A program made the translations under genes and the position numbers. Of a stretch of 64,000 nucleotides of DNA, positions 11,401-14,400 are shown in pieces. Under the pieces are notes generated by a model, which saw only the letters and a program-made list of their open reading frames with translations, did no database searches and had not been told where the DNA came from. This DNA comes from Liolophura sinensis. Taxonomy: Eukaryota > Mollusca > Polyplacophora > Chitonida > Chitonidae. Each line of letters opens with the position of its first letter. Positions within the stretch are counted from its first letter, which is position 1. The stretch spans positions 31,355,608-31,419,607 of the forward strand of contig NC_088300.1 of the NCBI RefSeq assembly GCF_032854445.1. The letters are read 5' to 3'.

Positions 11401-14400
11401 AAGGACAGGTTTCAAATGTACATTATGCAAATCACAAACTGTCAGGTACTAACTTTAGAAGACTGTCCTGTTATGTAGGAAAACAATAACCCCATATGTA
11501 CACATAACATGATCTACCAATACAGAGCAACAAATACAAACTTTGTATGCTTCTGAAAGTGCATTTTGACCTACCAAACTTCAAAGTCATCAAAATAATA
11601 CTTCTGATGACAACACTTAAGAACTTCACATAAAACCCTTCAGTGGCCCTATTAGGTGGATCAATCAATCAGAATTACACAAATTTTGCCACTTGAAAAA
11701 TTCTAAAATTTAACTGAAATAGACTATATATAATTTAGTATCTAAAGTTGTCCTTATCTGTGAGTAGCTTTAAAAAACATAGTTTTATCTTATTTACTCG
11801 AATAGTATTTAACTCATGAATGATGACTTCTATACAGATAAAAATCTGGTTTTGTGAGTGAAGGAAACCAGGTACCCGAGAGGCTTCCCGACTAACAGCT
11901 GCTGCTGAAATGGGAAGAGATGGATTTTAGCCTGTGATCTCATTGGTCAGTGTTAGATGTATTGATCTAAACAGGAAAGCTATGAAAACATTAAAATCCA
12001 GAAAAATAAAAATATCATTCTACTTTGGATTACAAAATAAAATTGGTGTCTCATAATGCAGTCTTGTTGAACAGAGCTTGCTTCTAATACCCAACTCTGC
12101 ATATAGGATTGAATTGTATAAGACATTACAAGTACCTGTCAAACCTACAGTATAGCTTACTTTTCATCCATGCCAGACCATACTCCTGGATATAGGATTG
12201 AATTGTATAAGACATTACAAGTACCTGTCAAACCTACAGTATAGCTTACTTTTCATCCAGTCCAGACCATACTCCTGGATATAGGATTGAATTGTATAAG
12301 ACATTACAAGTACCTGTCCAACCTACAGTATGGCTTACTTTTCATCCAGTCCAGACCATACTCCTGGATATAGGATTGAATTGTATAAGACATTACAAGT
12401 ACCTGTCAAACCTACAGTATAGCTTACTTTTCATCCAGGCCAGACCATACTCCTGGATATAGGATTGAATTGTATAAGACATTACAAGTACCTGTCAAAC
12501 CTACAGTATAGCTTACTTTTCATCCAGGCCAGACCATACTCCTGGATATAGGATTGAATTGTATAAGACATTACAAGTACCGGTCAAACCTACAGTATGG
12601 CTTACTTTCATCCAGTCCAGACCATACTCATGGATATAGGATTGAATTGTATAAGACATTAAAAGTAACGGTCAAACCTATAGTATAGCTTACTTTTCAT
12701 CCAGTCCAGACAATACTCCTTCCCGCAGGCCAAACAGTGCGAGGTGTGAAAGGTTCCATGAGCCTCTACTATCTTGTCACCATTTAAACCTGATACTCTC
12801 TCAAGGGTGTCAATATTCTGTACAAAAACAGTGTGCACAAGACGGATTTATTTATTTGATTGGTGTTTTACACCATACTCAAGAATATTTCACTTGTACT
12901 AAGGCAGCCAGCACTATTGTAGGAGGAAACTGGGCACAGCACGATGGGAAGCCAATGGCCATCCGTGGGGTTGTCTGCCAACAACCTGCGGATGGTTGGG
13001 AGCTGGACTTGAGCTCACAGCTCCCACACTGGTGAGAGGCTCCTGGGGTCATTGGGTCATGGAGGCCCCAACAATGAAGCAGAAAGCGTGTGGTGCACCA
13101 ACCGCCCCCCCCCCCCCGATAATGAAGCCCCAAGAGACTGGGGTTATTTCATTGATGTGCTTTACATCTACAATCAATACTGAAACCGAAACAAATGAAA
13201 TGGGTCTATTGCACAGTAATGCCTACAACCGTCATTTCCTTGATTCATCTGTCCTCCTGACTGTTTGAAATAGGCGGATTTTTACACTAAGCCACTTGAA
13301 ATAAAGGAGATAACTGTGGACTTGTAAGCAAAAGCAGTTGCGTTACATTTGCAAACTACTTGCTTTCCTTTGTTCAAGAGGGTGAGTATCTATTTATTTA
13401 TTTGATTGTTGCTCAACATCATATTCAAGGATATTTTACTTAAATGAAGGCAGTCAGAAATGTAGGTGGAGAAAAACCAGAATACCTGAGAAAAACTACC
13501 AACCTATACCACGTTACTGACAAAATTTTCCAAAATGTGATGTACAGATCCGCACATCACCCACAACCATCAGCAGGTTGCTGCCGGATCTTCCCATATA
13601 CGACCTGAGATTTCATATTTACATCTGACAACTAAGTATTAACATCTGATAATCGTTGACACTGTGTACTTGGTACTTACCACCCTTACAAAAGTTCCTT
13701 ATCAGTGAAGATATACACAGCTGTTTGTAATTTTCTGGGATGACTGACGAATAATAGTTAGAATATCTCCGTTTTCTTGACAATAAACTACACGTAAATT
13801 ATGACCAGATTATCAATTAAATAATTGTAGTAATTCTTGAAATATAAAAGCGTTTCTCACAGCATGTGCATGTAGTGTCAGCTGTAAAGGGAGATAACTG
13901 ACCTGTGTATAATGCCTCAGTAACAGCCCTTTGTCATCCAACATCTTGATGAAGTAGTGACACGGAGTTGGCTAGGAAAAAAACCATTAAATTTACATAC
14001 TCATTTTACTAAGTATAGACTTAATTTAATTCACAAATTTATAAAGCTTTGCACTGTAAGGTGTACAGCTTGGTAAACAGAACAGCCATTTAACTCTGCC
14101 TATATGTAAGTATAAAATAAGTATTCCTATCGAGAACAGAATGAAAATTGATATAAAGCCAAATCTGAGTTATCCTTATATACATAGCCTGAGACACCTT
14201 TAAAAATCTTTGTTAAGGCTTACCTTGAACTGTCCAGGAAATAACTCTCTGGCTAGCTCAAAGAATGGCTCAGGACTTTCCTAAAAAAAGAAAAAAAAAC
14301 CAAAACACACACACAAAAATTACTGAGGTTACCACTCAAGAAAGTACAGGTGTAAAACCAAGTTTAAGTGCGTATGAAACACTTCGCATAAACCTTGCTG

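What the first reader, a model, noticed from the sequence alone, without database searches (positions are those of the whole stretch)
12101..12817. Seven tandem copies of one 5' splice site: SIRT2 exon 7 end repeated in its own intron
The last 27 bases of exon 7 plus GTAAGC are repeated six times downstream at an 89 bp period, keeping both the exon-like stretch and the donor in every copy. The splicing machinery is offered seven near-equal donors. Use of any downstream copy would retain an in-frame TAA about 11 codons past the normal junction, truncating the enzyme after the catalytic His211 and the first zinc cysteine pair but before the second pair. If used, it would be a switch between working and dead SIRT2; if not, the first-donor preference is informative about splice-site choice. 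The conservation of the donor in all copies may only reflect youth of the array.
Basis: partly seen in the sequence, partly recalled or inferred. Interest (0 to 1): 0.78.

Follow-up and report, generated by a model that had tools for sequence, protein, structure and literature searches.

The report
Splice-site minisatellite in molluscan SIRT2 gene
A small repeat has copied the end of one SIRT2 exon and its splice signal seven times in a row, and the same oddity turned up at about one in thirteen of the comparable exon ends sampled in this mollusc, much like a phenomenon described in lancelets as 'mirages'.

Summary
Seven head-to-tail units (88-89 bp, 96% matches) start 25 nt inside a SIRT2 exon, and each carries the identical donor AAA|GTAAGC. 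The reading as a SIRT2 on/off switch has no positive support. Using any downstream donor retains the same stop (12661-12659) and would give one truncated product. The copies show no sign of selection on the donor.

The array is one of a class. In the same genome, which carries a molluscan-type haemocyanin gene, arrays spanning the splice site occur at 6 of 78 donor edges and 2 of 95 acceptor edges sampled from helicase, kinase and sirtuin exons. A first set of 60 loci held six more. One case is SIRT6-like.

Such structures are known as 'mirages' in amphioxus (PMC3087553, PMC3902484), where RT-PCR suggests normal splicing is undisturbed. Human CBS has a comparable 31-bp VNTR. I call this a molluscan mirage whose first donor is probably the one used; that step is inferred. 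My paper searches listed no report from a mollusc. The edge sample suggests a donor excess over random seeding, but an exact-motif scan of one contig does not support it. RNA evidence is the missing decisive test.

The parts
12694..12817 (-). SIRT2 exon (124 nt, NIDTLERV...CLDWMK), ending one base into a codon
   Evidence: phmmer to human SIRT2 chains E 3.6e-12; splice borders and reading frame
12097..12720 (-). minisatellite of 7 units, 88-89 bp, unit = 25 nt exon end + 64 nt intron start
   Evidence: TRF; unit alignment
12692..12693 (-). GT of the authentic donor, copy 1 (AAA|GTAAGC)
12604..12605 (-). GT of donor copy 2 (use would add 88 nt)
12515..12516 (-). GT of donor copy 3 (adds 177 nt)
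12426..12427 (-). GT of donor copy 4 (adds 266 nt)
12337..12338 (-). GT of donor copy 5 (adds 355 nt)
12248..12249 (-). GT of donor copy 6 (adds 444 nt)
12159..12160 (-). GT of donor copy 7 (adds 533 nt)
12659..12661 (-). TAA retained in frame by use of any of donors 2-7; 53 to 498 nt upstream of the new junction
12542..12544 (-). first CAG|G junction (before copy 3); copies 3-7 are each preceded by TATATCCAG, so each could be read as a 64-nt GT-AG intron followed by a 25-nt exon
   Evidence: acceptor pyrimidines 12/18, equal to the real acceptor of this exon (12/18)
10889..10954 (-). next SIRT2 exon ([22 protein letters not shown]), second zinc Cys pair

Best explanation
This is a molluscan 'mirage': a minisatellite whose repeat unit straddles a 5' splice site. 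A short tandem duplication copied the last 25 nt of the exon and the first 64 nt of the intron. The two breakpoints share an AG (exon GGGA-AG|GAGTAT, intron TATGC-AG|AGTTGG). The duplicate was then amplified and partly homogenised within the array. The original exon and first donor stay intact at the upstream end, so the duplication is tolerated. The spliceosome most likely keeps using the first donor at 12693, and the six copies are removed as intron. Shown here: the anatomy, the coding consequences, the neutral-looking pattern of the copies, and unrelated cases in the same genome. Inferred: origin by ordinary tandem duplication, and silence of the extra donors. An array like this would be a standing source of low-level unproductive transcripts and of raw material for new introns.
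For: TRF array and unit alignment. One place found in the genome, so it does not look like a dispersed satellite. Boundary unit kept apart from the rest: at 4 columns (7, 38, 51, 57) copy 1 differs from all six other copies. That is the 'exclusion of cluster boundaries' described for amphioxus BflGb6 (PMC3087553 passage). Donor 9-mer divergence 26/584 against 117/1883 exonic and 39/1211 intronic, and GT kept in 62 of 65 copies counted in 11 arrays, which gives no sign of selection. Same structure at other exon ends of this genome: donor edges 6 of 78 and acceptor edges 2 of 95, and in the first 60 loci five donor cases (L005, L015, L016, L022, L030) and one acceptor case (L031) among 18 arrays. 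Every use of a copy that I translated gives the same truncated frame or a frameshift, so productive mRNA requires donor 1. [quoted passage not shown]
Against: No RNA data: first-donor use is inferred. All seven donors have the same predicted U1 pairing (-4.5 kcal/mol), so nothing in the 9-mer favours the first. Predicted accessibility does not favour it either: P unpaired 0.042 for copy 1, but 0.134 and 0.139 for copies 3 and 4. The classical preference for the intron-proximal of two equal donors (recalled) would point to the last copy. [quoted passage not shown] The human CBS VNTR is listed with lower enzyme activity and higher homocysteine (PMC1395315 table), so silence is not guaranteed.
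Confidence: 0.8

Rival explanations
1. A regulated or constant poison: some transcripts splice at a downstream copy, retain the TAA at 12661-12659 and are degraded or make a truncated inactive SIRT2, so copy number tunes SIRT2 level.
For: Seven identical donors. All six alternatives retain the same stop, 53-498 nt before the new junction. The human CBS 31-bp VNTR across the exon 13-intron 13 border is listed with raised homocysteine and lowered activity.
Against: No selection signal on donors in 11 arrays. The arrangement occurs at unrelated genes. Amphioxus cases were reported to splice normally. For copy 2 the stop lies 53 nt from the junction, near the usual 50-55 nt limit for decay (recalled).
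Confidence: 0.12
2. Intron gain in progress: the array supplies complete 64-nt GT-AG mini-introns and 25-nt exons (copies 3-7), some of which are spliced as new introns and microexons.
For: Copies 3-7 are each preceded by TATATCCAG and followed by GTAAGC. The pyrimidine count of the acceptor (12/18) equals that of the real acceptor of this exon. Intron gain from boundary duplications has been proposed for amphioxus globins, and a duplication crossing a boundary gave a new intron in potato (PMC4974935 abstract).
Against: One microexon shifts the frame and meets a stop at once; two reach a stop within the second. So these inclusions cannot yield normal SIRT2. A 25-nt exon is short for recognition (recalled).
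Confidence: 0.05
3. Assembly or sequencing artefact.
For: Read data could not be inspected.
Against: Units differ from one another in an ordered way (copies 3 and 4 identical, copy 1 distinct, copy 2 with a 1-nt deletion). The same class appears at other loci on several contigs.
Confidence: 0.03

Closest known systems
'Mirages' of amphioxus: minisatellite-like tandem duplications of exon-intron boundaries (Adh3, globins BflGb6 and BflGb9, TnC, PGBD5; PMC3087553 and PMC3902484, passages read)
   Same: Unit spans an exon-intron border. Splice signals are kept in many copies. Donor and acceptor borders are both affected. Several unrelated genes carry one. The boundary unit is excluded from homogenisation. 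Unit length is comparable (10-72 bp Adh3, 150-160 bp BflGb6).
   Different: Host is a mollusc, not a lancelet. A sampled frequency is given here (6 of 78 donor edges, 2 of 95 acceptor edges). Splicing and copy-number polymorphism are untested.
Human CBS 31-bp VNTR, c.1444_1467+7(16_21) (PMC2630376 and PMC1395315, passages read)
   Same: By its name the unit is 24 exonic nt plus 7 intronic nt, so each copy repeats the donor.
   Different: 31-bp unit and 16-21 copies, polymorphic in people and listed with raised homocysteine. A single gene.
[quoted passage not shown] title only, seen in the reference list of PMC2915984)
   Same: A minisatellite supplying repeated donors.
   Different: By the title the donors are in a transcript; details not seen.
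[quoted passage not shown] internal tandem repeats at exon-intron boundaries in human duplicated genes, PMC2812944, passages read)
   Same: Tandem duplication across an exon-intron border creating extra splice sites.
   Different: No new intron has been shown here.

Membership tests
Mirage (boundary minisatellite) | tandem repeat unit spans an exon-intron boundary | tested here: met
   25 nt exon + 64 nt intron, 7 units
Mirage (boundary minisatellite) | copies carry splice signals | tested here: met
   identical donor 9-mer in 7 of 7
Mirage (boundary minisatellite) | recurs at unrelated genes of the same genome | tested here: met
   6 of 78 donor and 2 of 95 acceptor edges; 6 of 18 arrays in 60 loci
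Mirage (boundary minisatellite) | boundary unit excluded from homogenisation | tested here: met
   copy 1 differs from all others at 4 columns; copies 3 and 4 identical
Mirage (boundary minisatellite) | copy number differs between haplotypes, somatic instability | not testable with these tools
   one assembled copy only
Mirage (boundary minisatellite) | regular splicing undisturbed | not testable with these tools
   no RNA data
Intron gain by tandem duplication | a new intron is spliced out between duplicated copies | not testable with these tools
   only the sequence potential is shown
Exonic or intronic poison switch under selection | donor copies conserved beyond the rest of the unit | tested here: not met
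   26/584 vs 117/1883 and 39/1211 divergent cells in 11 of the 12 donor arrays in hand
Donor hot-spot of minisatellite birth | excess of arrays seeded on donors | tested here: inconclusive
   edge sample 5-6 of 78 against about 0.6-1.4 expected; but exact AGGTAAGT triples gave 13 arrays against 15 and 8 for two control words on the first 90.4 Mb of C1

The most novel reading that the evidence does not exclude
In this mollusc several percent of all splice donors, and so probably thousands of genes, carry natural tandem arrays of near-identical donors. They would be born by a process that favours 5' splice sites and maintained long enough to feed alternative splicing and intron gain. SIRT2 and a SIRT6-like gene would then be two of many natural experiments in which the spliceosome is offered up to two dozen near-equal donors in a row.
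Probability: 0.3. Interest if true: 0.75.

Novelty: new member of a known kind. Interest (0 to 1): 0.5.

Why it matters
How the spliceosome chooses among equal 5' splice sites, and how introns are born, has mostly been studied with engineered duplicates or a few genes (recalled). A genome in which boundary arrays sit at a few percent of exon ends offers natural replicates with different unit lengths, copy numbers and donor strengths (for example L115, where the copies counted pair better with U1 than the authentic donor). It would also extend mirages from lancelets to a protostome. For the SIRT2 array alone the message is modest: probably silent repeat growth at a tolerated place.

Tried and rejected
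Tried without gain. A search mixing SIRT2, alternative splicing, mollusc, oyster and minisatellite matched 232 papers; of the 10 listed none is on this. A search on minisatellites and splice donors matched 104 papers, 20 listed. A search for intron tandem repeats with splice donors in molluscs gave no papers. A search combining minisatellites, tandem repeats, splice sites, introns and gastropod gave one paper on Conus peptide gene structure, whose title and start of abstract only were seen. Two papers were not held.

Rejected readings. A dispersed satellite is rejected because one place only was found. A SIRT2-specific device is rejected because unrelated genes share the feature. Selection on donor copies is not seen. 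Predicted RNA accessibility does not single out the first donor. A coding rescue by inclusion of one or two 25-nt units is rejected because of stops; larger numbers were not translated.

Results against my own wider reading. The exact-motif test did not show more arrays for the donor word than for control words (13 against 15 and 8 on the first 90.4 Mb of C1, from places listed, whose lists stop within C1). The whole-genome match counts were 569 for AGGTAAGT, 397 for TGAATGGA and 469 for GATGAGTA (488 for its reverse); long arrays inflate all of them. The donor against acceptor difference (6/78 vs 2/95) is not significant (Fisher p 0.14). In one search two of the 18 arrays (L014, L025) were first read on the wrong strand. 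Reread, neither contains exon sequence that I could see; L025 ends close to an acceptor. The count of six stays. Several of the 18 run off the end of their locus.

Rows dropped before the edge count. Of 46 unfetched rows, 43 were used. Of 108 unfetched rows, 48 were used, picked by eye as partial matches; the other 60 include full-length matches, rows with stops and some partial ones that I left out. Of 22 rows outside the window, 13 were used. That is 104 rows, giving 78 donor and 95 acceptor edges. At least 3 donor and 4 acceptor windows overlap loci of the first sample (checked against 34 of the 61 loci); none of these is a positive. The TRF limit for 'touching' was written, after the fetch and before the result was seen; my note says otherwise and is wrong on that point (corrected).

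Full report
Check of the observation. The window holds, on the minus strand, a sirtuin gene whose 41-aa exon at 12817-12694 matches human SIRT2 (E 3.6e-12). TRF reports an 89-bp array of 7.0 copies, 96% matches, at 12097-12720. Splitting it into units gives donors at 12693, 12605, 12516, 12427, 12338, 12249 and 12160, all with the 9-mer AAA|GTAAGC. The unit is 25 nt of exon plus 64 nt of intron, and one copy is a base shorter. 12 of 89 columns vary. Copy 1 differs from all six others at columns 7, 38, 51 and 57, and copies 3 and 4 are identical. A search of the assembly found one place.

Consequences. The next exon starts at 10954 and continues the frame after donor 1 ([19 protein letters not shown]). 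Any of donors 2-7 adds 88, 177, 266, 355, 444 or 533 nt and retains the TAA at 12661-12659, giving [14 protein letters not shown] and a stop before the second zinc Cys pair. The stop lies 53 to 498 nt before the new junction. Copies 3-7 are also preceded by TATATCCAG, so each could be read as a 64-nt GT-AG intron followed by a 25-nt exon. The acceptor has 12 of 18 pyrimidines, as has the real acceptor of this exon; the acceptor of the next exon has 15. One such exon shifts the frame into a stop, and two reach a stop in the second. So normal SIRT2 needs donor 1.

Junction. The exon side reads GGGAAG|GAGTAT and the intron side TATGCAG|AGTTGG, so the breakpoints share AG. That is compatible with an ordinary short tandem duplication. 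The rest looks like repeat growth with partial homogenisation, the boundary unit being left out.

Is SIRT2 special? To get a base rate I fetched 60 exon loci of two families from the same genome (30 of 76 helicase-domain matches; 30 of 138 kinase matches). TRF found 18 arrays (period 20 or more, 2.5 copies or more, score 100 or more) in 206,883 bases. Reading them in gene sense, five span a donor: L005 eIF4A-like, 45 bp; L015 DEAD-box, 22 bp x 26; L016 DDX41-like, 39 bp x 22; L022 SMARCAD1-like, 69 bp x 11; L030 DDX42-like, 85 bp. One spans an acceptor: L031 DDX47-like, 81 bp. L008 begins at what looks like the stop codon of a DDX23-like gene. All six are in helicase loci; none of the five arrays in the kinase loci, whose matches often lie in long open frames, was one. 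Gene labels are recalled from peptide resemblance; only the domain comes from the Pfam search.

Second sample. I then took exon edges defined by partial domain matches (104 rows; the rows left out, and a few windows that overlap first-sample loci, are told in Tried and rejected) and fetched 420-bp windows at 78 donor and 95 acceptor edges. Arrays reach into the exon at 6 of 78 donor edges: L071 DICER-like, L073 DDX24-like, L086 DDX21-like with two copies, L107 receptor kinase-like, L115 GRK-like and L136 SIRT6-like. They do so at 2 of 95 acceptor edges: L186 and L189. Exact 95% limits are 2.9-16.0% and 0.3-7.4%. If array units were seeded at random at the density of the window (9 arrays, about 65 bp), 0.71 donor and 0.87 acceptor edges would be expected. 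P for six or more donor cases is 8.5e-5, or 0.003 if the density is doubled. With five cases (dropping the two-copy L086) it is 0.0008 or 0.014. For two acceptor cases it is 0.22. The density estimate rests on few arrays.

Test against a donor hot-spot. If donors seeded arrays far more than other sequence, triples of AGGTAAGT at 22-52 bp spacing should outnumber control words. On the first 90.4 Mb of contig C1 there are 13 distinct arrays for AGGTAAGT, 15 for the reversed word and 8 for a permuted word. No excess is visible. The test is blunt (exact consensus only, one contig, background word counts unknown), but it does not support the hot-spot. The existence of the class does not depend on it.

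Selection. Over 11 of the 12 donor arrays in hand (L086 left out; 65 copies counted beyond the first), divergence from the copy consensus is 26/584 in the donor 9-mer, 117/1883 in the exonic rest and 39/1211 in the intronic rest, and GT is kept in 62 of 65. L015 and L030 contributed one copy each, which cannot show divergence, because later copies fell under the alignment limit. The donors behave as neutral passengers as far as this shows. In L115 the authentic donor AAG|GTATGC pairs less well with U1 (-5.7 kcal/mol) than its four counted copies (mean -9.2), a useful natural test.

Which organism. The genome has 609 Mb in 632 contigs, and the first loci lie on 13 contigs of 19 Mb or more and one small one. 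It carries eight matches to the haemocyanin beta-sandwich family PF14830 in a row within about 11.5 kb. That family and the eight-unit layout are typical of molluscs (recalled), so I take it as a mollusc, probably a gastropod.

What is known. [quoted passage not shown] RT-PCR suggested no interference with regular splicing, copy numbers differed between BflGb6 haplotypes (6 and 3), boundary units escaped homogenisation, and a model of intron gain was offered (PMC3087553 passages). PGBD5 and TnC are further lancelet cases (PMC3902484 passage). Human CBS has a 31-bp VNTR named c.1444_1467+7(16_21), that is 24 exonic plus 7 intronic bases per unit (PMC2630376 passages). It is listed with raised homocysteine and lowered activity (PMC1395315 table). 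Another CBS duplication, of 68 bp across a splice junction, is spliced strongly at one of its two sites, the more distal. Human internal repeats at exon-intron boundaries can give novel introns (PMC2812944 passages), and a boundary-crossing duplication gave a new potato intron (PMC4974935 abstract). My ten paper searches listed no report of such arrays in a mollusc; some lists were capped, and the library lacks most subscription papers.

Verdict. The switch reading is unsupported. The most likely account is a neutral molluscan mirage with first-donor use, the last step inferred. The surprise lies in the frequency across the genome rather than in SIRT2.

Noticed in passing
L136 (G000:C8:7736584-7737003), 25-420: A SIRT6-like exon (GNMFVEECDKCHTQ) also ends in a donor-spanning 38-bp array, about ten units within the stretch fetched; two sirtuin genes of one genome carry such arrays at the zinc-binding exon.
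   Followed up: partly
L016 1643-2501 and L015 1633-2212: Donor-spanning arrays with about 22 and 26 units in DEAD-box genes; longer ladders of near-equal donors than in SIRT2.
   Followed up: partly
L115 (G000:C10:22583796-22584215): The four counted copies have a donor that pairs better with U1 than the authentic one (GTAAGC vs GTATGC).
   Followed up: partly
L189, L186 and L031: Acceptor-spanning arrays upstream of kinase and DDX47-like exons; there the last copy is the authentic one.
   Followed up: partly
L025, array 2625-2923 (contig strand +; the gene is on the minus strand): A 53-bp array ends close to the acceptor of a CHD-like exon without reaching into it.
   Followed up: partly
L008, sense 2424-3189: A 41-bp array begins at what looks like the stop codon of a DDX23-like gene, hinting that other gene borders can be copied too.
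   Followed up: no
window 6363-7793, 25520-26393, 42867-43405, 46514-47486, 55559-56452: Minisatellites make up 9% of the window (9 arrays, 5,816 bases); whether the others touch exons was not tested.
   Followed up: no
window 14759, minus strand: The SIRT2 exon starting with AGIPDFRS has a CAGCAGCAG tandem acceptor (NAGNAG type).
   Followed up: no
window 17880-17949, minus strand: A 24-bp repeat inside an open frame (PSDKEGQA repeats), possibly coding.
   Followed up: no
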